Origin: Opitutus terrae PB90-1
GTDB taxonomy: Bacteria > Verrucomicrobiota > Verrucomicrobiia > Opitutales > Opitutaceae
Length of the DNA: 64,000 nt
Assembly (NCBI RefSeq): GCF_000019965.1
Contig: NC_010571.1
Location: forward strand, 2,737,001-2,801,000
Reading direction: 5' to 3'
The translations under genes were made by a program, and so were the position numbers. The notes beneath the pieces were generated by a model. It did not search any database. It had not been told where the DNA came from and saw only the letters and a list, made by a program, of their open reading frames with translations. Shown in pieces: positions 22,828 through 48,766 of the stretch; position 1 is the first letter of the stretch, and each line of letters begins with the position of its first letter.

Positions 22828-25800
22828 CTACTGCACCTCGAGCGCGAAGCTCTCGGAGTGGCTGTTGAATTCCGGCGCATACATGCACTGGATTTCCGCG
22901 ATGCCACTTTGGTAGCTGCCGCGCAGCTGGACGCGCGTCGAGTATTCGAAGACGTAGGTGCCCTTCGGCAGGTAATCGATGAAGAAATGCGAGGCGGTGT
23001 CGCGCGTGCTTTCGTAATAGGCGAGTCCGTCCTGATAGCGGTAGCGGCTCAGCACGTTCACCGGTTCAGTGCCGCTGCCACGCTGATCCTTCAGGTGCAC
23101 GAACTCCATGTCGCGGTCGGTGCGGAGCTCAATCCGGACGACCAGTTCGTCGCCGACTGCGAGCGGACCGCGCACCGGCTGGAGCACCTGGCCGCGCCCC
23201 GTCGTTTCCTTCACGAAGAGCGTTTTCTTAAGCCGCAGCGGCGTGCCCTCGTGTGGTGTGACCTTCGCCATGTCCTCCAGATACTGCCAGTGCACGCCAC
23301 CCCAGCTCACGCCGTCGTCCACTTTCTTGACGGTGATCTCGCCGAGAGCGGGCGTGATTTCGTTCGCGGCGAACTTCTGCTCGTAGAAACCGGTGCCGGC
23401 TTCGACTTTTTCCGGCTTGATCAGCTGGCCGCCGAGCGAGACTTCGACGAGCGCGTCGCTAGCGAGCAACTTGGTGCCGCCGCGCAGCAGCAGTCCGTAG
23501 ATCGCGTCGGCGGTCGACTTGGTCGTCGGCCAGGCTTGCGTCTGCTTTTGTTTCAGCAGCCAGACACGGCAGGCGTCGACCGCGGCCTCATCGTGACCGA
23601 TCTCCTCGAATACCTCGATCATCAGCGCCTGCGTTTCGATCGGCGCACGATACCACCACCAGCTTAGCTCGAGCTCGCGCCAGAACATGCCGAGTTCCTC
23701 GTTGCTCACGCTGCGTTCCTTCAGCGAACGCAGGATCTTCGCGGGCGTCTGCTCGTCGCCGAACCGTTGGAGCGCGAGTGCGAGATGCGCCTGGCTCTGC
23801 CGCGAATTGGTGTCCAGCCAGCGCTTCCGCGCCTGGTTGAGGAAGAAGTCCACGGCCTTCCGGTGCTCGGTCGCGACCGGCTGATCGTCGAGGAAGAAAC
23901 TGCGACCATAGAGATACAACGCTTCCGTCGGAGTGGGGGTGTGCTCTTCTGGATGGTCGCCCCTCAGGATTTCGCGGTAGCGCTCGTCCATCCAGGCGTC
24001 GAGTGCGGTGAGCGAGCGAATCGCGGGTGCGACGTCGAGTTCGACGCCGAGGTGACGCAGCCGACCGAAGCCCGTGGTGATGTAGAGCGTGATGTAGTCG
24101 CTGGGGCGGCCGCCGGGGAACCACGGCCAGCGGCCGTCGCCGAGCTGTTGCTGCACGAGCTTGTCGAGCGTGCGCGGGGTTTCCTCGTCGAGCCGGTTCG
24201 CATCGAACAGAAGGCCGACGTTGCGGCGGGCGGCGCTCTCGTTGTGCGCCTCGCGGACCCACGGCGTTTCCTCGAGCAACACGGATTTGAGCTCCTGGTT
24301 TTTCTCCAGCGGGCTGTCGAGCGCGGGCGTGTTTTTCCAGAGATCGAACACCCGGCGGATTTTCGGATCGGAGTTGGCGATGTGCCGCGCGAGGACGTTC
24401 GCGTAGAGCCGGTTGAACACCTGCTCGCTGCACTCATACGGAAACTCCATCAGGTAGGGGAGCGCCATCACCGCGTACCACGCCGGCTGCGAGGTCATCT
24501 GCACCGTCAGCGACTGATGGCGCAGCGTGTTGGAGGAGCCTGACTCGAGCAGCTTAGTGAACTGGAAATGCTTGGTCGTCGCGCCGCGGATCGGCAGCGG
24601 CAGCGACTCCGTCACGAGAATCCGCCGGCTCAGCACCGGCAGGAAACCTTCCTCGCCATCGCTGAACGAGGCGGAGGCCGCGACCGCCTTGTAGGTGAGG
24701 AAGCCCATGCCGTCGGGAATCGCGATCCGCCACGAATAGGTGCGCGACTGTTTCGCCGGCACGTCGAACGGCTGCTCAGTGCTGCGGTTCGCGAGCGCTT
24801 CATCGGCCGGCTGCAGCGAGGCGGCGTCAGCGAAGGTCAACCGGACCGTGCCCTGTTGCGGCTGATCGCTCTGGTTGCTCACCTTCACGGTGAACTCGAT
24901 CGCGTCGCCCTCGCGCACGAACCGCGGCGGGTTTGGTTCGACCATCAGGTCCTTCGCGGTGACGACCGTGCCGGTGAGCGAGCCGGCGCGCAGCTGCCGG
25001 TCGTGCGCGAACCCGAGGAATTTCCACTCGGTCAGCGCCTCTGGCATCGTGAACGTCATCCGCACCGTGCCGTCGTCGCCCGCGGTGAGGTGTGGGAAGA
25101 AGAACGCGGTCTCGTTTAGATTCCGCCGCGCCGTTATCTTGCTAAGATCGGGTTTGGGTTGTGGTGCAGCGTTGTCGACCGCGTCCATTTGCTGTGGGGC
25201 GCCCATAGACGGCATCGCCATTTCTAGGGTCACCGCTGGTGCGGCCATCATCGATTTCTCGCGGCGCTGATCGTCCGCGATGGAGAATGCCGACAGCGTC
25301 ACCATTTCGCCCGCGTTGGCGGCTTCCGGCACACCGCCGAGCCCGCGTGCGCGGGCATAGCCGTAGCCCCAGAGGTTGCCAATGATTCCCTGCGGGAACG
25401 CGCGGTAGCTCCAGTCGACGTCGCGATATTCCGTTCTCCATCCGCCTTTCATGGCGTCGAGTGAGCGCGCGCCGTTTTGGAACGCGGTCCACACGGCATT
25501 GAGTTCCTGCCGGAAGCCGGGGAACGCCGACGGCCAGTGGTGCGGCTGGAACTGATCGAGCGACGCGTCGTAGAGCGTCGCCACCATTTCGGCGGCGGCG
25601 CGCTGCGCATCCGGACCAGTGACCACCGCCGTCCACGTTTCCTTTTCGCCGGGCAGGAGCTTCGAGCGGAACCGCTCCCATTTCACCGCGAGTTGTCGGT
25701 CCGACCACGGCACCTCGACCACGCGTTGGTTGATGTAGCCGCGGTTCTCCCGGACGTAGGTCGCACGCACCGTGAACCCGCCGCGCATCTGCTCGGTCAC

Positions 25801-28800
25801 CGGCAGCTCGATCAGCTCCTGCGTCCGATCGCCGCGAGTCCAATAGCTCTTGAGCCGCTTCCCGGCGCATTCGAGTTCGACGAACACGCGGCCGCATTCG
25901 TAGCCCGTGCCCCAAAGCGCGACGAATTTTTCCCCCGGTTCGACGGACCACTTGGGTGCGGCGAAGTGGTTGGCGAGTCGGATCGGATAGTCGCGGGACT
26001 GCGGGTCGATGACTTGAAATGTGAGTCGCGCGGTGACGGTTTTCCCGAACCGGTCCTTCGTGTCGAGCATCGCGCGATAGATGCCCGCCGGAAGTTTCAT
26101 TGCGACTTTGGTGGTGCCGCTCGCGTCGGTGGTGAAATCACGCCGTTGCACCTCGGCGCCGAGATCCCATGCGTCCGGATTTGCCGGGTCGGCCGGGCGC
26201 TCCACCGGCTGCGGCCACCACGCGCGTCGCTCCGAATCGAGCATCGCTCGTTGTACGCGCTCCGGTTGTTTCACCGCGTGCACCACGAGCGCTCCGCTCG
26301 CCGGCTGCGGATCGAAGTCGAGCGACTGGGTCGTCAACGTGAATTGCACCGGCTGCGCCACCGTTTGCCACTCGTCGCCGATGACCTCGGCCTGCAGTGC
26401 GGTGTAGCCGGCGCGGAGCGCGCGCTCGTCGGAGCGCGTTTCGCCGGTGGTGTCCGTGACGTCGGCGTACACCGTGAACACGAACACCGGCTCGTTCTTC
26501 GCCGGCACGGCCGGATCGGCCGTGGCCGGGAACTCAACCGCGAAGGTGCCATCGGGTTCGGTCGTGGCGGTGCCGTGAGCGATCGCCTTGTTCGCCGGCG
26601 GCGTCCACCACCAGCACCACCGTGGGAGCTGCACGCCGCGTTCGACGCGCCATTTCACCCGCGCACCGCCGATCGCCGCGCGCGTGTAGGCGGTCGCCTT
26701 GCCCGTGAGCTTGACCGGGGCGTTCAACCGCGCGGCCTCTGCCGGCGCGGCGAGCTCCACCTGGAATTTCGGTCGCTTGTATTCTTCGACAGCAAAACTG
26801 GTCGCGCCATTGGGACCGCCTTCGACTACGAGCGTCATTCGGCCCGTCAGGCGATTCGCCGGCGCGGTGAACACGCCGCTGAACGAGCCATACTCGTTGG
26901 TCACGTGCGAAGCGCGGGCGATTTCTTCGCCGTTGGGGTCGCGGAACAATACCGTGATACTGCGGCGCGAGAGCGTCTCGTAATTTGCTTCGTCACGATC
27001 CGTGCGCACACAGATGCCCTTGTAGTGGATCGTCTGGCCCGGCCGGTAGAGCGCGCGGTCGGTGAAAAAGATCGTGTGCGCATCACGTCCGTCCGTGCGT
27101 CCGAATCGCTCCTGGTGCACTTCGTTGAGACTGGAAAGGGCGTGACCGGCATGCTCGGCGAGCACGATGAGTGATTGCTGTGGGGGCACCGTTGGGAACT
27201 CGAACCAACCGTTCTCGTCACTGCGCGTGGGCGCGATTGGCAGGAACCGGCCTTCGCGATTGCGATGCCAGAACCGGACGTTCGCACCCGCGACCGGATC
27301 GCCGCTGTTGGCCTGCAGCACGAAGCCGCCCTGGCCGAGATTCTGATGTCCGGTGCGCAGCACCAGCGCCAGGTTGGTGACCCACCCCGTCGCCACGCTG
27401 AGTTGGTTGTCGCTCTCGTCAAACGAGCGGCGGTGACTCGCGAGGATCGCGTAAAAACCCGGCTGCAGCGTGGTGGGCACAGGAAGCCGCTCGGTGCGCT
27501 GCCGGAAATTTTTCGTCGCTGGCAACGGCGCGTCCCAGGCGATCGCGGGCGATTGGTCGAGCAGCTTCTCGCGCTGCTCGGATGAGAGCGAACCAAACCC
27601 CCAGCGTTGCTCAGCCACGTAACGGTTGAAATCGAGCGGCACCGCGCGGAAGTAGACGTGCTGCACGTTGCGGTAGGTCACGTCGAGCGTCGGCCACGGT
27701 GCATTCCATGTGAACTCGGTCGTCACCTGCGCCGAGGGCGCCTCGATCTGCGCGATCAGATTGAAGCACATGGCCCCGCCGACGCTCTTGGGAAAGGCGG
27801 CGAGTCCGCGTTGCGCCAGTTCGCGGGCGAGCGCCGGTTCGTCCTCGGCATTCAGCTGCGTCGCGAGCGTGGCGAGGGCACGCGCTTGGGTCTCGTGCTT
27901 CTGTGTCTGGGCGATGAATCGCTCGAGCGCGGCTTTGTAGGGCACAGCTTTGTCGTCGCCGACCGCGACGTTGAACCCATACGTAAGTCGCGCGAGATCG
28001 GCGTCGAAAAACGCCGAGCGATCGGTGTCGTGCTCGTGGAAACGCAGCAGCGCCTGATAAAGCCGGATGGCTTTCAGTTTCGGCGAATCGATATCGGCGG
28101 CGGGGGTCTGTGGTTCCCAGCGCAGAAACGCCTCGGCGGTGGCGAAGATGGGACTGGTGTCTTCGATCTCAAACGTCTCCTCCGCTTCGACCGCGGCCTG
28201 TTCGCCGGCCTGGTAGAACTGCAGTGCTTCGTTGACGAGGAAGTCGAAGAGCGTCGGTCGATAGGCATCCGGCGCCGTGCCCTTGGTGAGCAGTTCCTTG
28301 AAATCGCCGATCGGCGCGGACTGGAGCGCCTTCGGGTCCGCGAGCGCAGCGGTAAAATGCCGGTCGATTTCCGCGAGAATCCTCGCGAGGTCCCACGTTT
28401 GAATATCCTCGCCCGGCGGCTCCGCCGTCTGCGTGCGCTGCAGGAACCGCCAGCGGTTGCGCTGGAAGTACTGCCAATACCACTCGGCGAGAATCGTCTC
28501 GAGCACGGGCCGCGCCGCCGGCGCCGCTTTCGGCAATTCGGCCTGCAGTCGGACGATTTTCTCCTCGGGCTTGTTGCCCTCGATGTTGCCTTGCAGCGCG
28601 ATCTTCCAGGCGAGCGCGTGAATCGCCTCGGCGTGTGCCTGCTCCGCGTTGGCGGCGGCAAGGATCGGTTCCAGTCGTTCGATGGCGGTCTTCGGCTGAC
28701 CTTCGTTGATGGCGTCGAAGACCTCCTTCCACTGCTTGTCGCGCGGACCGGCCAGGAGCGAACTGAGCAAGCAGGTGCAGGCGAACAGGACCGAGAGCAG

Positions 28801-28812
28801 GCGATGTTTCAT
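22828..28812 (-). CDS. Bacterial alpha-2-macroglobulin family protein
   Basis: A 1994-residue secreted protein, longer than the usual 1500-1700. The N-terminus has a signal peptide (RLLSVLFACTCLLSSLLAG); a Cys is present but the lipobox is poor (LFAC), so lipidation is uncertain. Residues 30-330 are helical and TPR-like. Then come MG domains (MG2 near ALYRPGQTIHYKGI), the bait/MG region, the A2M block (LTEWKFLGFAHDRQL) and the thioester domain, where FPYECSEQVFNRLYA carries the CxEQ motif with Cys1461. A helical thioester-domain repeat and a C-terminal MG10-like beta domain end the protein. Such proteins trap invading proteases after bait cleavage. The usual partner PBP1C (pbpC) is not adjacent. 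Confidence 0.93.
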   Translation of the reverse strand: MKHRLLSVLFACTCLLSSLLAGPRDKQWKEVFDAINEGQPKTAIERLEPILAAANAEQAHAEAIHALAWKIALQGNIEGNKPEEKIVRLQAELPKAAPAARPVLETILAEWYWQYFQRNRWRFLQRTQTAEPPGEDIQTWDLARILAEIDRHFTAALADPKALQSAPIGDFKELLTKGTAPDAYRPTLFDFLVNEALQFYQAGEQAAVEAEETFEIEDTSPIFATAEAFLRWEPQTPAADIDSPKLKAIRLYQALLRFHEHDTDRSAFFDADLARLTYGFNVAVGDDKAVPYKAALERFIAQTQKHETQARALATLATQLNAEDEPALARELAQRGLAAFPKSVGGAMCFNLIAQIEAPSAQVTTEFTWNAPWPTLDVTYRNVQHVYFRAVPLDFNRYVAEQRWGFGSLSSEQREKLLDQSPAIAWDAPLPATKNFRQRTERLPVPTTLQPGFYAILASHRRSFDESDNQLSVATGWVTNLALVLRTGHQNLGQGGFVLQANSGDPVAGANVRFWHRNREGRFLPIAPTRSDENGWFEFPTVPPQQSLIVLAEHAGHALSSLNEVHQERFGRTDGRDAHTIFFTDRALYRPGQTIHYKGICVRTDRDEANYETLSRRSITVLFRDPNGEEIARASHVTNEYGSFSGVFTAPANRLTGRMTLVVEGGPNGATSFAVEEYKRPKFQVELAAPAEAARLNAPVKLTGKATAYTRAAIGGARVKWRVERGVQLPRWCWWWTPPANKAIAHGTATTEPDGTFAVEFPATADPAVPAKNEPVFVFTVYADVTDTTGETRSDERALRAGYTALQAEVIGDEWQTVAQPVQFTLTTQSLDFDPQPASGALVVHAVKQPERVQRAMLDSERRAWWPQPVERPADPANPDAWDLGAEVQRRDFTTDASGTTKVAMKLPAGIYRAMLDTKDRFGKTVTARLTFQVIDPQSRDYPIRLANHFAAPKWSVEPGEKFVALWGTGYECGRVFVELECAGKRLKSYWTRGDRTQELIELPVTEQMRGGFTVRATYVRENRGYINQRVVEVPWSDRQLAVKWERFRSKLLPGEKETWTAVVTGPDAQRAAAEMVATLYDASLDQFQPHHWPSAFPGFRQELNAVWTAFQNGARSLDAMKGGWRTEYRDVDWSYRAFPQGIIGNLWGYGYARARGLGGVPEAANAGEMVTLSAFSIADDQRREKSMMAAPAVTLEMAMPSMGAPQQMDAVDNAAPQPKPDLSKITARRNLNETAFFFPHLTAGDDGTVRMTFTMPEALTEWKFLGFAHDRQLRAGSLTGTVVTAKDLMVEPNPPRFVREGDAIEFTVKVSNQSDQPQQGTVRLTFADAASLQPADEALANRSTEQPFDVPAKQSRTYSWRIAIPDGMGFLTYKAVAASASFSDGEEGFLPVLSRRILVTESLPLPIRGATTKHFQFTKLLESGSSNTLRHQSLTVQMTSQPAWYAVMALPYLMEFPYECSEQVFNRLYANVLARHIANSDPKIRRVFDLWKNTPALDSPLEKNQELKSVLLEETPWVREAHNESAARRNVGLLFDANRLDEETPRTLDKLVQQQLGDGRWPWFPGGRPSDYITLYITTGFGRLRHLGVELDVAPAIRSLTALDAWMDERYREILRGDHPEEHTPTPTEALYLYGRSFFLDDQPVATEHRKAVDFFLNQARKRWLDTNSRQSQAHLALALQRFGDEQTPAKILRSLKERSVSNEELGMFWRELELSWWWYRAPIETQALMIEVFEEIGHDEAAVDACRVWLLKQKQTQAWPTTKSTADAIYGLLLRGGTKLLASDALVEVSLGGQLIKPEKVEAGTGFYEQKFAANEITPALGEITVKKVDDGVSWGGVHWQYLEDMAKVTPHEGTPLRLKKTLFVKETTGRGQVLQPVRGPLAVGDELVVRIELRTDRDMEFVHLKDQRGSGTEPVNVLSRYRYQDGLAYYESTRDTASHFFIDYLPKGTYVFEYSTRVQLRGSYQSGIAEIQCMYAPEFNSHSESFALEVQ

Positions 28813-42844: not shown

Positions 42845-45800
42845 ATGAGTACGAATACAAAACGAGACAGTTGGATCCATCATGGGGCCTTTGTCAGGAT
42901 CGTCCTCGCGATGGGGGTGCTGAATCTGGCAAACGTGTGTAGGGCGGCGGTGGACCTTCCCGAGGGTTTTCCGGCCATTATCTGGCACCCGCAATCCCAG
43001 ACCGTCACCGCTGGGATCAACATTTCGCTTACGGTGGTGGCATCCGGCGCGGCCCCGCTGAGTTACCAGTGGAAGAGGAATGGCGTCGACATCACGAACG
43101 CGACGGGCTCCGCCCTTGCCTTGAACAATGTGCAGGCGGCAGACCTCGGCAGCTATACGGTGGTCGTCAGCAATGCAATCGGCAGCGCCCTTTCGAATCC
43201 GGCGATCATCTCCGGAATAGAACGTTTCTTCAACGGACATGCCTATGACGTGACGCCGCAAGGAATGGAATGGAACGAGGCGGAGAACTGGGCGAAGTCA
43301 CGCGGCGGGCACCTGGTGGCGATCAACAGTCAGGCCGAGCAGGATTTCCTGCTGCGGAATTTCGGCGCCGAGCCGTCGTACTGGATTGGGCTCTCCGACC
43401 AGGCGGCCGAAGGTGACTGGAGTCGATGGTCCAACGGGGAACCGGCGACCTACGGCAACTGGGCGTCCGGCGAACCGAACAACGCCAATGCGGGCGAGGC
43501 GTTCGCGATGATGAACTGGAACACGAACCAGGGGATTTCCGGGTTGGGGCAGTGGAATGACCTTCCGGGCGGACGGACGCCGGGAATCATCGAATACGTC
43601 ATCGGCGGCGCCCGCGCACCGGCACAAAAAAAGCCGCTGGAGGCAAAGCTGATTGTTCCAAACGCGCTGGGCCGGCATGTGACGGCGACCCTGTACGTGG
43701 AGTGCACCAACAACAGTACGGTCGCGATACCGGCTCCGCTCTTGCTGGTGCGCAGCGCCGACCGGGCGTTGCTGACGCTCGATCCGGCTCGCGTCGTGGC
43801 GGGTTTCTGGAGTTCGGTCGCGGTGGAAGGATTTGCGGACACGGTGCAGATTCTCGCCAGCGGCGCCGCCCCGGGCGTCCTGGCGCCGGGTGAGTCGGTC
43901 CGCGTTCCCGTGTATTATGCCGGGCTGCAACAGCCCTGGAATTTCGGCGACAGTCAGCTCGAGTTCGAGGTGGGAGCACTGACCGCCGACAGCGAAGATC
44001 CGATTGATTGGTCCACGCTCAAAGGCCGCCTGCGCCCGGCGTCGATGAGCGATGCGGGGTGGGAGGCGGTCTGGACGAATTTCGTCGCAGGCGCCGGACA
44101 TACCTGGGGCGAGTACGTGACCATGCTGAACGATAATGCGGCGTTTCTGGGCCGTATCGGCCGCCGCGTGGTTGACGTGAATCAGTTGCTCGGGTTCGAG
44201 CTGCTGCAGGCTGATGGGTTGGGACCGGTTCGGGTCCTTGCCGCCGCCAGCGATGCCCAGGCGGCAGGGCCGGGATTGGATCTGGTCTTTGCGCGCAGCT
44301 TTGGCGCGGCAATCTCTCCCCGCTTCGAGGTGGGAGCGTTCGGGCGGGGCTGGACGCACAACTGGCAATACTCCGCGCAGCGGGCGGGTGACGGCACTGT
44401 CACCATCCTCGGTCCGGCCGGTTCGCGCCGCATGTTCCATCCCGACAGTCGCGCCGGCACCAGATACTTCACCCAGCCGGGTGATCACGGCGTGCTCGCT
44501 GCGCTCCCAGGAGGCGGATTTACGTTGAGCGAAACCGATGGATTGGTGCGGGCGTTTCGGTCCGACGGCCGACTGGATTACGTGGCAGTTCCGAACGGCA
44601 ATCGGATCACGGCCCGCTGGACTGGTGATCTGCTCACGCGGCTGGAGCACTCCAACGGCCGCGGGCTCGACATCATCCACGATGGCGGGCTGATCCGCTC
44701 GATCACCGACCCCATTGGACGGACGACGGCCTACAGCTATGACACCGCGCAGCACCTCACGGGCGTTCGCTACGCCAGTGGCCAGGAGATCGGTTACGAG
44801 TACAATACGATTGCTGGCGCACCCGGCGAACACGCTCTGACGCAGATCAACGAATCCGGTGGCACCCATAAGAGCGTCAGCTACGATGCGGCCGGCCGGC
44901 TTGCCGGCACCAGCCTCTCCAGCGGCGCCGAAGCGCTTGGCTTTGCCTACGACAGTGCCGGCAGGGTCACGGTGACCGATGCGCTCGGTCACGCGACCCG
45001 GCACTTTTTCGACTACCGGGGATTGCTCGCGAGAACCGAGGATGCCCTCGGACACCCCGTGCAGATGACGTTTGATGACGAACATAATCTCGTGGAGCTG
45101 ACCGATCCGGCGGGCGGCAGCTACCGCTACACCTACGATTCGAAAGGCAATGTGATCGAAGCGGCGGATCCGCTCGGAGCGACGACGCGCTTTGCTCATG
45201 CTGGCGCCTTCAACCGGCTGGCATCCGTCACCGATGCCAAGGCCAATCTCACGCGGTACACGTACACGACCGAAGGCGATCTCCAGTCGATCACCTATGC
45301 GGACGGCAGCGTTGAACGCTGGACATACGATGCGAACGGCAACGCCAGCGGCTGGACCAACCGTCGCGGACGGACGATCGCCTACGCCCGCGACAACGAC
45401 GGGCGGCTTACGACAAAAACGTTGGCCGGCGAGAGTCGGACGACTTTCGACTACGACGTCCGGGGCAATCTCACGTCGACCACAGATGCCACCGGCACCA
45501 CGCGATTCGACTACGATGCCCGGGATTGGTTGACCCGGATCACCTATCCGACGGGGCCATGGCTGCAGTTCACCTACGACGCTGCGGGCCGCCGCGCGAC
45601 GAGTCTCGATCAACTCGGACATCGGTTGAACTATGGTTACGACGCGGCCGGCCGGTTGGAGCAACTGACGGACGAGCAAGGCCGGAGGATTGTGCACTAC
45701 ACCTTTGACGCGGCGGGACGCCTGGCTGGCAAGACGCTCGCCAACGGGCTGACCGCGACGTACGCCTACGACACCGCCGGGCAGTTGCTGGTCCTAACCA

Positions 45801-48766
45801 ACGCACTCGCCAGCGGCGGCACGCTTTCACGCTTCGCCTACGCCTACAACGATCGGGGCCGTCGCACGGCGATGGAGACGCTCGAGGGCCGTTGGACCTA
45901 CGACTACGATGCGTTGGGCCAGCTCACTCGCGCGGCGTTCGCTTCTACCAATCCGGCCGTGGTTCCGAACCAAGATCTAGCGTATGTCTACGATGCGCTT
46001 GGCAATCGCATCCGGACGGTCGAAAACGGCGTCACCACCGAATACTCCAGCAACAATCTGAACCAATATGTGCGCACGGGCGACACGACCTATCGCTTCG
46101 ACGCGGATGGCAACCTGGTGCAGGAAGCCACGGCTGAAACCACCACGACCTACACCTACGACGACGAAAACCGGCTTGTGGCTGTGCGCAGGGGGACCGA
46201 CACGTGGAGTTACGGGTACGACGCGTTTGGCGGGCGCGTGACGAGTTCGGAGAATGGCGTTACGACCCGGTTCGTGCTCGACCCGATCGGGCTCGGCAAC
46301 GTCGTCGGCGAGTACGACGCGGCGGGCGAACTGATCGCCCGCTACGACCATGGGTTTGGGCTGCTGGCGCGCGCTGATCCGGCGGGCATCGAAGCCTACT
46401 ACGCATTCGACGCGCTCGGCAGCGTGCAGCAGGTCGTCACGGCCGCAGGCGAAGTGGCGAACCGGTACACCTATGCACCATTCGGTGGGTTGATTGGGAG
46501 AACGGAGACGCTCCCGAATCCGTTTCAGTTTGTCGGGCAGGTTGGGGTGATGAGCGAGTCCAGCGGATTGGGCTTCATGCGCGCGAGATTTTACAGCGGA
46601 CAGTGTGGGCGATTCATCCAAGCGGATCCGATCGGTCTAGCCGGTGGATTGAATCTGTACGCCTACACGATGAACGATCCAATCGGAGTTGATGATCCAT
46701 CAGGGAAATTTGTCCCGATTGCCGTGCAACTGGGCGTTGGAGTCATTGCCTATTACGTCGCATCCCGAGCGTTCGTCTATTGGCCGCGGATTGCTCCCGT
46801 TGTGTCCATTGTTGAACAATTGCCCGAGGGTGTGCCCGGCCCTGTTACCGACATAGGCGGACTGGCGGGATTTGGGCTGAAAAATGGTCGCGATCTGGCG
46901 CAGCTTTCTAACGAAACGCTGTACGGCATTGCGGCCATCAACCAAACGGTCGGAAACGCGATGCTGGACTGGATCGCTCGAGCCATCAATCCGCCGTCGT
47001 ACATGACGTCGATTCAAACGTCGAATCCTCCGGTTCCGCCGTACCAAATACTGGTTTCTGAAGGAACGTATGTCGCATTCTCGCAGGATCCCAACGCCAA
47101 GACGGGACCGACGGGATTTGGCGAACCCAACTACGTTTCTCCGAGCGGGGCGTTTGGCTATCGGATCGACTTCGAGAACGACGCCCACGCGACCAGTCCG
47201 GCGCAGCAGGTTGTCATCACCGATCAACTCAGCCGCGATCTGGACTGGGCGACTTTCCAGTTGTCCGAAATCGGCTTTGGCGATTCGTGGATCGTCGTTC
47301 CGGCCGGGAGCCGGAGTTTCGAGCACACCGAGCACGTCACCTACGATGGCGTCGATTTCGACGTGCAGATCGAGGTCACGCTCAACCCCGCATCAGGTGC
47401 GCTGTCCGCGACCTTCCGATCGGTCGATCCGCGGACAGGTTTGCCACCACCCGTGAACATCGGATTCCTGCCGCCGGAAAACGGCACGGGCCGCGGACAG
47501 GGTCACCTCTCCTACACGATCGCGCCAAGGCACGGACTTTCCACCGGCACCGCCATTCGCAATGTCGCGCTGATCTCCTTTGACGGTCAGCCCACCATCG
47601 CCACAAACCAGCGTGATCCCCACGATGCCAGCCGGGGAACCGATCCCACCAAGGAGGCGTTGCTGACGATCGACGCCGATGCGCCGACTTGCGACGTGGT
47701 CGTCCGGCCCATCGCCGGCTCGCCAAACCGCCATACGGTGGGCTGGTCGGGCAACGACTCAGGTGCTGGCGTGGCCGGTTTCGACATCTACATGTCGATC
47801 GACGACGGCCCTTGGATGCTGTGGCAGGTCAGTGCTACCGCGTCTTCGGCCGCTTTCGACGCGATGGCTGGCCGGACCTACCGGTTTTTTGGCCAGGCGC
47901 GGGATGCGGCGGGCAATCTCGGCAATCCCTCGAGCGAAGTTCGTCCCGCGGCGTTGAGCCAGCTCGTCAATTTCTCGATTCGATCTGCGGCCGGCCTCGG
48001 CAGCGATACCCTGATCGTCGGATTTGTCGTGAGTGGCGGCGCCAACAAGTCGCTGCTCGTGCGTGGCGTCGGACCGTCGCTCGGCGGGCAGGACGTGCAG
48101 GGGCCTCTCGCCGATCCGATTCTCACGCTCTATTCCGGCACTGGTGCGGTGATCGATTCCAACGACGACTGGGGCAGCACCGCCAATGGCTCTGTCATCG
48201 CAGCCACGACGCTAAAGCTGGGGGCCTTTGCCCTGCCGGACGATAGCCGCGATGCCGTGGTGATGCCTACATTGGCGAGTGGCGTCTACACGGTTCACGT
48301 TACAGGCAAATCGACGACAACCGGGGTGGCACTCACAGAAGTCTACGACGCCGCCGTAACCACCAGCGCCGCCCGGCTCGTCAACGCTTCAGCGCGAACC
48401 CGGGTGGGAACCGGTGATCAGATCCTCATCGCGGGCTTCGTGATCGTTGGCGATGGGAGCAGACCGCTGCTCATCCGTGGCATTGGTCCGACCCTAGCGG
48501 AGCTTGGAGTGGAGGGAGTGCTCAACGACCCGCAACTCGTGCTCTACCGGCAGGGTGTCGCTACCCCGCTTGAACAGAACGACAACTGGGGCGGAACCAC
48601 GGTGCTGCGCACCGCGTTTGGCTCAACAGGCGCGTCCTCGCTGGATGGCTCCAGCAAGGACGCCGCGGTGTTGGTAACCTTGCCTGCCGGCGCCTACACG
48701 GTGCACGTCAGCGGCGTGGGCAACACGACGGGCGTCGCCCTCGTTGAAGTCTACGAACTCCCATGA
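42845..48766 (+). CDS. Giant secreted Ig / C-type lectin / RHS-repeat protein with adhesive C-terminus
   Basis: A 1973-residue protein starting at ATG 42845 (GGAG 4 bases upstream) with an N-terminal hydrophobic signal (AFVRIVLAMGVLNLANV). An Ig-like domain spans about 45-120 (SYQWKRNGVDITNATG), a C-type lectin domain about 125-255 (AENWAKSRGGHLVAINSQAE, WSNGEPATYGNW, GEPNNAN), a linker 260-600, RHS/YD repeats 600-1250, and the RHS core about 1254-1290 (GRFIQADPIGLAGGLNLYAY). After the core comes a hydrophobic 130-residue segment, a beta domain 1428-1590 (YRIDFENDAHATSPAQ), an Ig-like domain near 1607-1700, and two copies of a repeat (1707-1835 and 1843-1973) with LLVRGVGPSL and LLIRGIGPTL. 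No toxin domain or immunity gene is present. Confidence 0.9.
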   Translation: MSTNTKRDSWIHHGAFVRIVLAMGVLNLANVCRAAVDLPEGFPAIIWHPQSQTVTAGINISLTVVASGAAPLSYQWKRNGVDITNATGSALALNNVQAADLGSYTVVVSNAIGSALSNPAIISGIERFFNGHAYDVTPQGMEWNEAENWAKSRGGHLVAINSQAEQDFLLRNFGAEPSYWIGLSDQAAEGDWSRWSNGEPATYGNWASGEPNNANAGEAFAMMNWNTNQGISGLGQWNDLPGGRTPGIIEYVIGGARAPAQKKPLEAKLIVPNALGRHVTATLYVECTNNSTVAIPAPLLLVRSADRALLTLDPARVVAGFWSSVAVEGFADTVQILASGAAPGVLAPGESVRVPVYYAGLQQPWNFGDSQLEFEVGALTADSEDPIDWSTLKGRLRPASMSDAGWEAVWTNFVAGAGHTWGEYVTMLNDNAAFLGRIGRRVVDVNQLLGFELLQADGLGPVRVLAAASDAQAAGPGLDLVFARSFGAAISPRFEVGAFGRGWTHNWQYSAQRAGDGTVTILGPAGSRRMFHPDSRAGTRYFTQPGDHGVLAALPGGGFTLSETDGLVRAFRSDGRLDYVAVPNGNRITARWTGDLLTRLEHSNGRGLDIIHDGGLIRSITDPIGRTTAYSYDTAQHLTGVRYASGQEIGYEYNTIAGAPGEHALTQINESGGTHKSVSYDAAGRLAGTSLSSGAEALGFAYDSAGRVTVTDALGHATRHFFDYRGLLARTEDALGHPVQMTFDDEHNLVELTDPAGGSYRYTYDSKGNVIEAADPLGATTRFAHAGAFNRLASVTDAKANLTRYTYTTEGDLQSITYADGSVERWTYDANGNASGWTNRRGRTIAYARDNDGRLTTKTLAGESRTTFDYDVRGNLTSTTDATGTTRFDYDARDWLTRITYPTGPWLQFTYDAAGRRATSLDQLGHRLNYGYDAAGRLEQLTDEQGRRIVHYTFDAAGRLAGKTLANGLTATYAYDTAGQLLVLTNALASGGTLSRFAYAYNDRGRRTAMETLEGRWTYDYDALGQLTRAAFASTNPAVVPNQDLAYVYDALGNRIRTVENGVTTEYSSNNLNQYVRTGDTTYRFDADGNLVQEATAETTTTYTYDDENRLVAVRRGTDTWSYGYDAFGGRVTSSENGVTTRFVLDPIGLGNVVGEYDAAGELIARYDHGFGLLARADPAGIEAYYAFDALGSVQQVVTAAGEVANRYTYAPFGGLIGRTETLPNPFQFVGQVGVMSESSGLGFMRARFYSGQCGRFIQADPIGLAGGLNLYAYTMNDPIGVDDPSGKFVPIAVQLGVGVIAYYVASRAFVYWPRIAPVVSIVEQLPEGVPGPVTDIGGLAGFGLKNGRDLAQLSNETLYGIAAINQTVGNAMLDWIARAINPPSYMTSIQTSNPPVPPYQILVSEGTYVAFSQDPNAKTGPTGFGEPNYVSPSGAFGYRIDFENDAHATSPAQQVVITDQLSRDLDWATFQLSEIGFGDSWIVVPAGSRSFEHTEHVTYDGVDFDVQIEVTLNPASGALSATFRSVDPRTGLPPPVNIGFLPPENGTGRGQGHLSYTIAPRHGLSTGTAIRNVALISFDGQPTIATNQRDPHDASRGTDPTKEALLTIDADAPTCDVVVRPIAGSPNRHTVGWSGNDSGAGVAGFDIYMSIDDGPWMLWQVSATASSAAFDAMAGRTYRFFGQARDAAGNLGNPSSEVRPAALSQLVNFSIRSAAGLGSDTLIVGFVVSGGANKSLLVRGVGPSLGGQDVQGPLADPILTLYSGTGAVIDSNDDWGSTANGSVIAATTLKLGAFALPDDSRDAVVMPTLASGVYTVHVTGKSTTTGVALTEVYDAAVTTSAARLVNASARTRVGTGDQILIAGFVIVGDGSRPLLIRGIGPTLAELGVEGVLNDPQLVLYRQGVATPLEQNDNWGGTTVLRTAFGSTGASSLDGSSKDAAVLVTLPAGAYTVHVSGVGNTTGVALVEVYELP

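What the first reader, a model, noticed from the sequence alone, without database searches (positions are those of the whole stretch)
42845..48766. RHS protein whose tip is an adhesive domain set, not a toxin
The sequence shows an Ig and a C-type lectin domain before the RHS repeats, a complete RHS core at residues 1254-1290, and then almost 700 residues of beta domains and two copies of a repeat ending in EVYDA and EVYELP. In known RHS polymorphic toxins the core is followed directly by a 100-150 residue toxin and an immunity gene; neither is visible. This suggests a lectin-bearing surface or matrix protein that uses the RHS shell for another purpose.
Basis: partly seen in the sequence, partly recalled or inferred. 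Interest (0 to 1): 0.7.

Follow-up and report, generated by a model that had tools for sequence, protein, structure and literature searches.

The report
RHS shell mounted on adhesin stalk
A toxin-type protein shell (RHS) is built here into a secreted protein with a sugar-binding-type head, a pilin-like stalk and a tail shared with other secreted proteins, and the same shell-and-stalk order recurs in several bacterial phyla and in archaea, so it may be a toxin scaffold turned into an adhesin.

Summary
After the RHS core come not 700 residues of beta domains but (a) a 126-residue segment (1288-1413) in the position where RHS toxins sit; (b) DUF7619, a pilin/CnaA-like stalk domain with a predicted isopeptide triad (K1419, D1460, N1573); (c) an FN3-like domain; (d) two copies of a 127-residue module that ends 10 of its 11 carrier proteins in this genome. 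Of 80 loci encoding relatives of this region, 31 have an RHS core shortly upstream, in Verrucomicrobia, Planctomycetes, Cyanobacteria, Chloroflexi, Thermoplasmatota and others. In 25 aligned proteins shell (40%) and DUF7619 (44%) are conserved, the segment between is not (9%), and the RHS self-cleavage residues are invariant. No named toxin family matched, no immunity gene was seen, and two Nostoc relatives carry a von Willebrand D domain there. Best reading: a self-cleaving RHS shell repurposed in a lectin-headed surface protein (0.5). A capped toxin is not excluded (0.25). Cleavage, isopeptide bond, sugar binding and surface location are predictions.

The parts
42845..42949 (+). signal-peptide-like N-terminus (residues about 1-35)
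   Evidence: sequence; GGAG before the ATG
42971..43174 (+). Ig-like domain (residues 43-110), a type met in dozens of places in the genome
   Evidence: Pfam Ig_3 E 1e-9; own-genome matches
43262..43525 (+). C-type lectin domain (Pfam match 140-227); EPN at 210-212 lies in it, WND at 237-239 just beyond
   Evidence: Pfam Lectin_C 8.5e-12; motif positions (offset 120); meaning of the motifs recalled
43634..44239 (+). pre-shell domain (residues 264-465), unnamed in Pfam but for the edge of DUF6531; one match spans it and the shell in 13 of 31 RHS-DUF7619 loci
   Evidence: phmmer
44240..46471 (+). RHS/YD shell (residues 466-1209; DUF6531 466-529, RHS repeats)
   Evidence: Pfam; model 2 matches Rhs cores at Z up to 35.8
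46472..46705 (+). RHS-associated core (residues 1210-1287) with R1248, D1261, D1284 at the autoprotease positions
   Evidence: TIGR03696 3.5e-20
46706..47083 (+). hypervariable slot (residues 1288-1413), in the position of RHS toxins
   Evidence: low pLDDT
47084..47671 (+). DUF7619, pilin/CnaA-like stalk domain (residues 1414-1609) with K1419, D1460, N1573
   Evidence: Pfam; fold; triad
47678..47950 (+). FN3-like domain (residues 1612-1702)
   Evidence: model 1 and fold matches
47969..48349 (+). tail module 1 (residues 1709-1835, ends at EVYD)
   Evidence: profile
48383..48757 (+). tail module 2 (residues 1847-1971, two residues before the stop)
   Evidence: profile

Best explanation
A secreted, surface-displayed RHS protein that works as a lectin-headed fibrillar adhesin rather than as a delivered toxin. 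Shown from sequence and models: signal-peptide-like start, Ig and C-type lectin head, RHS shell with the self-cleavage residues, a variable segment, a pilin-like DUF7619 domain with a K-D-N triad, an FN3-like domain, and a tandem tail shared with other secreted proteins. Inferred: the tail attaches or exports the protein at the producer's surface; the stalk (locked by a Lys1419-Asn1573 bond) carries the shell outward; the lectin binds polysaccharide or neighbouring cells. About 560 residues follow the slot, by my arithmetic some 75,000 cubic angstroms against a reported cavity of about 44,000 in a bacterial teneurin, so stalk and tail must lie outside and the slot must thread out of the shell. 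The core probably still cuts the chain near DPSGK (1284-1288), leaving the head held to the stalk by the slot peptide inside the shell, a joint that could let go under force or on contact.
For: DUF7619 matches pilin and antigen I/II stalk domains (SpaD Z 13.3, 131 residues, 2.6 A). PMC12617251 lists PF24595 as a predicted isopeptide domain of surface proteins; the residues that I match to its triad covary: 40 of 41 rows with K have D and N, 4 of 22 without K do. 31 of 80 loci share RHS core + slot + DUF7619 in several phyla. Ten of the 31 C-termini were scanned: dockerin in 3, RTX in 2, and L073 ends in a membrane-helix-like stretch by eye. The own tail ends 10 of 11 carrier proteins, a GH115 and a matrixin among them. 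No named toxin family in 31 slots; VWD in the slot of two Nostoc relatives. Downstream same-strand ORFs are not commoner than in the other DUF7619 genes (5 of 26 against 13 of 40). R, D, D invariant in 25 of 25 rows.
Against: The slot is hypervariable and directly follows intact autoprotease residues, as in polymorphic toxins. Two genes of one cyanobacterium differ in the slot but are 97.4% identical in DUF7619+FN3, which looks like cassette exchange. L091 and L119 share a slot domain, and one slot matches a phage internal virion protein with endolysin domain (PHROG 342, 1.5e-7). Only 13 of 27 RHS rows have the full triad, so the bond is not essential to the family; triad spacing here (41 and 154) differs from the paper's example (38 and 107), so my mapping rests on alignment and covariation alone. 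In model 2 confidence falls below 50 from residue 1264, within the core.
Confidence: 0.5

Rival explanations
1. Capped polymorphic toxin: the slot is the toxin (here perhaps a membrane-active helical peptide, as in the Bacillus inaquosorum teneurin-like protein), held by the shell, freed at its N-terminus by autocleavage, and tethered by the DUF7619 stalk to the producer's surface; the lectin finds the target.
For: Slot directly after invariant R/D/D; mean pairwise identity 9% against 40% and 44% on either side; 4 of 465 slot pairs exceed shuffles at z>5, against 465 of 465 for DUF7619; L108/L109; the toxic segment of the known teneurin-like protein is also short and hydrophobic (PMC13018210).
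Against: No named toxin family in 31 slots; some slots are Gly/Pro-rich; VWD in two slots; no immunity-gene signal and none seen beside this gene; a further 560 residues follow the slot.
Confidence: 0.25
2. Plain modular adhesin or matrix protein: the shell is inert, the slot is only a fast-evolving spacer between shell and stalk, and no cleavage happens.
For: Slot of low confidence in both models and of very mixed composition across relatives; stalk and tail as above.
Against: R1248, D1261 and D1284 are invariant in 25 of 25 rows, whereas in mammalian teneurins, whose C-terminus stays uncleaved, the motif is absent (PMC13018210).
Confidence: 0.18
3. Chance fusion or decaying toxin gene: an RHS toxin lost its tip and was joined to a generic surface-protein C-terminus, with no selected function.
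For: The one same-genus genome searched gave only tail matches (E up to 1e-30; 7 of its 41 candidates scored); GC somewhat lower than the flanks.
Against: The same order recurs in 31 loci of several phyla with about 40%-conserved shell and stalk; the frame is open over 1973 codons.
Confidence: 0.07

Closest known systems
Bacterial teneurin-like proteins (PMC13018210; Results parts 1-2 of 3 and Discussion read)
   Same: RHS/YD shell, autoprotease R/D/D (spacing 13 and 24 there, 13 and 23 here), variable segment after the core, adhesion domains at the N-terminus
   Different: No NHL domain found here; their variable segment is the C-terminus and averages 15 kDa; a gene lies just downstream of almost all of them; here 560 residues of stalk and tail follow and no such gene is seen
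RHS polymorphic toxins (T6SS Rhs effectors such as RhsP, RhsA, Tse15; PMC3482391, passages read)
   Same: Shell fold (Z up to 35.8), core and cleavage residues, hypervariable segment after the core
   Different: No recognised toxin or immunity gene; the chain continues into a stalk; signal-peptide-like start instead of a VgrG/PAAR adaptor (the latter recalled)
Animal teneurins
   Same: YD shell (Z about 24-31); C-terminal part lies outside the shell; adhesion role
   Different: No NHL here; mammalian teneurins lack the cleavage motif and their outside part is ABD/Tox-GHH (PMC13018210), not DUF7619
Fibrillar adhesins and pilins with CnaA-like isopeptide domains (PMC12617251, passages read)
   Same: DUF7619 domain with K-D-N triad; adhesive-type head; C-terminal tail
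   Different: An RHS shell between head and stalk; a find for 'RHS' in that paper's main text gave 0

Membership tests
RHS/YD-repeat shell proteins | tandem RHS repeats, associated core, shell fold | tested here: met
RHS/YD-repeat shell proteins | autoprotease Arg + two Asp at the core | tested here: met
   R1248, D1261, D1284; invariant in 25 of 25 rows; activity not tested
RHS polymorphic toxins | toxin domain after the core | tested here: inconclusive
   a 126-residue slot is there but its sequence matches no Pfam, NCBIfam or PHROG family at E up to 0.05 and is low-confidence in both models
RHS polymorphic toxins | variable toxin is the C-terminal end of the protein | tested here: not met
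   about 560 residues of stalk and tail follow
RHS polymorphic toxins | immunity gene just downstream | tested here: not met
   convergent histidine kinase; relatives 5 of 26 against 13 of 40 in controls (a crude ORF test)
Bacterial teneurin-like proteins | FN-plug + NHL + YD-shell superfold | tested here: not met
   Pfam scan of the whole protein at E up to 1 lists no NHL or teneurin domain
Fibrillar adhesin with isopeptide stalk | CnaA-like domain with Lys, Asp, Asn triad | tested here: met
   PF24595, pilin/AgI-II fold matches, K1419/D1460/N1573 by alignment
Fibrillar adhesin with isopeptide stalk | isopeptide bond formed | not testable with these tools
   needs mass spectrometry or a crystal structure
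Fibrillar adhesin with isopeptide stalk | adhesive head domain | tested here: met
   Lectin_C above cut-off; binding not tested
Fibrillar adhesin with isopeptide stalk | surface anchor | tested here: inconclusive
   tail is a shared C-terminal module without Pfam match; its function is unknown

The most novel reading that the evidence does not exclude
A cross-phylum family of self-cleaving RHS adhesins (bacteria and Thermoplasmatota): the shell's own aspartyl protease cuts between head and stalk, and the exchangeable slot peptide trapped in the shell keeps them together as a releasable, possibly force-sensitive joint. It would be a second, prokaryotic route from RHS toxin to adhesion protein, parallel to animal teneurins.
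Probability: 0.22. Interest if true: 0.82.

Novelty: new variant of a known kind. Interest (0 to 1): 0.58.

Why it matters
RHS shells are known as toxin capsules and, in animals, as teneurin adhesion receptors. A recurrent prokaryotic arrangement that keeps the capsule and its cleavage residues but puts the variable segment between shell and an isopeptide-type stalk would show how toxin capsules turn into adhesion proteins, and makes it testable whether the variable segment is cargo or joint. The 127-residue tail, found at the end of many secreted proteins in this family of Verrucomicrobiota and without a Pfam match here, is a candidate sorting or anchoring module.

Tried and rejected
Tail as a T9SS C-terminal domain: NCBIfam gave Por_Secre_tail at E 0.064 over 21 residues (1805-1825), below its cut-off; SprA_N gave 0 of 38 genomes, but the control rang nowhere, so this says nothing. 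Tail in solved structures: E 0.22 or worse. This protein's slot (118 of 126 residues): one plasmid hit at E 0.9 and no match at E 0.001 in 287 other Verrucomicrobiota genomes. The slots of L119 and L109 had no plasmid match. The HNH-like look of the L109 slot and the enzyme-like look of L091/L119 are by eye and recall; no library supports them. Weak slot hits were not followed: DUF4781 in 2 and DUF1269 in 1 of 31, two NCBIfam hits at 0.0076 and 0.039, six PHROGs, the best at 1.5e-7. PADLOC was not run. Foldseek hits to the whole model 1 have low TM-scores (up to about 0.2 by query length among the 50 shown), as expected for many domains; the VIA-align rows are a second look at those hits, and no toxin fold can be excluded from them. 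Literature: searches listed no title or abstract opening on RHS-DUF7619 proteins; the one paper with the word DUF7619 is PMC12617251. Subscription journals and preprints are mostly not held.

Rows left out: A3 used 63 of 80 loci (mostly shorter matches left out), and the triad counts use 63 rows (62 loci and this protein); A4 used 24 of 31 RHS loci (6 truncated, L130 holds unread bases); A5 used 30 of 31; could test 26 of 31 RHS and 40 of 49 other loci, of which 9 and 23 had any same-strand ORF of 60 codons within 150 bases. L084 (stops in the frame) was not scanned but is in the denominator. C-termini of 10 and N-termini of 10 of the 31 were scanned; none of those N-termini showed Lectin_C at E 1e-4. 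The tail counts come from loci picked by similarity to this protein, so its two-copy rate (28 of 32) is biased; the own-genome count (18 modules in 11 proteins, 7 of them with two) is not. Signal-like starts were picked for hydrophobicity. The Fisher P ignores relatedness.

Full report
Gene. One frame, 42845-48766, gives 1973 residues. GGAG stands three bases before the ATG. Upstream are a ketopantoate reductase and a protein with Pfam's Alginate_exp domain; downstream and convergent is a hybrid histidine kinase. GC over the gene is 0.60-0.66 against 0.66-0.70 on either side. The window's family is probably Opitutaceae: one 'same family' contig (G029:C134, 4252 bases) has the length and matches of a named Opitutaceae contig (L068); that is inference.

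Head and shell. Pfam finds Ig_3, Lectin_C, DUF6531 and RHS repeats; NCBIfam finds the RHS-associated core. The lectin part has EPN (210-212) and WND (237-239), recalled as the calcium/sugar motifs of mannose-type C-type lectins. A model of 491-1690 gives a confident shell (pLDDT mostly 77-96) that matches T6SS Rhs cores at Z up to 35.8 and teneurins at about 24-31; some of the highest rows have rmsd over 15 A, the teneurin-like protein 2.4 A over 552 residues. R1248, D1261 and D1284 sit at the autoprotease positions reported for the B. inaquosorum protein (R2103, D2116, D2140); all three are invariant in 25 of 25 aligned rows. In that model confidence falls below 50 from residue 1264 on, so the cleavage site itself is not well modelled.

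What follows the core. Residues 1288-1413 are of low confidence in both models. DUF7619 and the FN3-like domain are modelled at pLDDT about 95 in model 1 and match pilin and antigen I/II stalk domains and FN3 domains; the tail modules reach about 70-88. PMC12617251 lists PF24595 among predicted isopeptide domains. Here K1419, D1460 and N1573 are present, and the three residues come and go together (40 of 41 rows with K have D and N; 4 of 22 rows without K do). The mapping to the paper's triad is mine; spacings differ (41 and 154 here, 38 and 107 there).

Relatives. One scan of genome contigs with the 1409-1973 alignment gave 107 relatives, of which the best 80 were kept; 31 of 80 have an RHS core upstream in the same frame, with 86-225 residues between core and DUF7619 match. 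They include Verrucomicrobia, Planctomycetes, Cyanobacteria, Chloroflexi, Thermoplasmatota, a Geobacteraceae, a Spirochaetales, a Hydrogenedentes and a betaproteobacterial bin; most are metagenome bins. Residues from 245-267 to 1287 or beyond align as one match in 13 of the 31; others start later, are split or are truncated. Mean pairwise identity in 25 rows: shell 40%, core 44%, slot 9%, DUF7619 44%, FN3 45%. Slot pairs beat shuffles (z>5) in 4 of 465 cases, DUF7619 in 465 of 465. In one cyanobacterium, L108 and L109 are 97.4% identical in DUF7619+FN3, 70% in the last 400 shell residues, and 27% in the slot, z 1.7 against shuffles.

What is in the slot. Pfam, NCBIfam and PHROGs on 31 slots gave no family named as a toxin; weak hits include DUF4781, DUF1269 and one PHROG (internal virion protein with endolysin domain, 1.5e-7). 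Two Nostoc plasmid relatives have about 360-390 residues there, including a VWD domain. Same-strand downstream ORFs are not enriched: 5 of 26 RHS loci against 13 of 40 other DUF7619 loci (a crude test). So the slot can hold non-toxic domains, but a toxin in this copy is not excluded.

Tail. The last 260 or so residues are two copies of a 127-residue module with no Pfam match at E up to 1. The own genome has 18 modules in 11 proteins; 10 of 11 carry it at the C-terminus (9 within 5 residues of the stop, one 19), one just after the signal peptide. Seven of the ten other carriers had Pfam domains: NHL, matrixin, GH115, DUF5122, DUF362, esterase, CHRD; three had none. Of 383 Verrucomicrobiota genomes 20 have the module, 17 of them in the same family (at most 11 candidates per genome were scored). 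Of the 31 RHS relatives, 10 C-termini were scanned: dockerin in 3, RTX in 2, PKD in 2 (one of them with PASTA), DUF4114 in 1, Spherulin4/cadherin in 1, nothing in 1. I read this as exchange of lineage-specific attachment or export modules; that is inference.

Mechanism. I favour a lectin-headed, self-cleaving RHS protein on a locked stalk at the cell surface (0.5). The capped toxin (0.25) explains the slot's variability equally well but not VWD, low-complexity slots or the missing immunity gene. The inert-shell adhesin (0.18) leaves the invariant cleavage residues unexplained. What is shown is the architecture, its recurrence and its conservation pattern; cleavage, bond, binding and location are predictions.

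Noticed in passing
L060:2408-10936 (own genome, G000:C1 about 3980407-3988935): A second RHS protein of the same genome ends in a short tip with an HESDH (HExxH-like) motif by eye, the ordinary toxin-type layout; its downstream gene was not examined.
   Followed up: no
47969-48757 and 10 other proteins of the genome (L160-L169): A 127-residue module without Pfam match ends many unrelated secreted proteins; in L166 two copies stand right after the signal peptide instead.
   Followed up: partly
L108:3759-4166 and L109:3699-4274: Two RHS genes of one cyanobacterium share a 97% identical DUF7619+FN3 region but have unrelated slots.
   Followed up: yes
L170 and L171 (Nostoc plasmids): A von Willebrand D domain sits between RHS core and the DUF7619 domain.
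   Followed up: yes
L091:6020-6394 and L119:7611-8000: Two cyanobacterial slots share a domain with an NCQxWAxxV motif for which the library scans of the slots showed no named family.
   Followed up: partly
L062/L050 (Verrucomicrobia bin B12_G4): On one contig an RHS frame runs off the contig end just as the DUF7619 motif begins, beside a CarboxypepD_reg protein with the same DUF7619+tail end.
   Followed up: partly
22828-28812 (-): A 1994-codon ORF, seen only in the ORF list.
   Followed up: no
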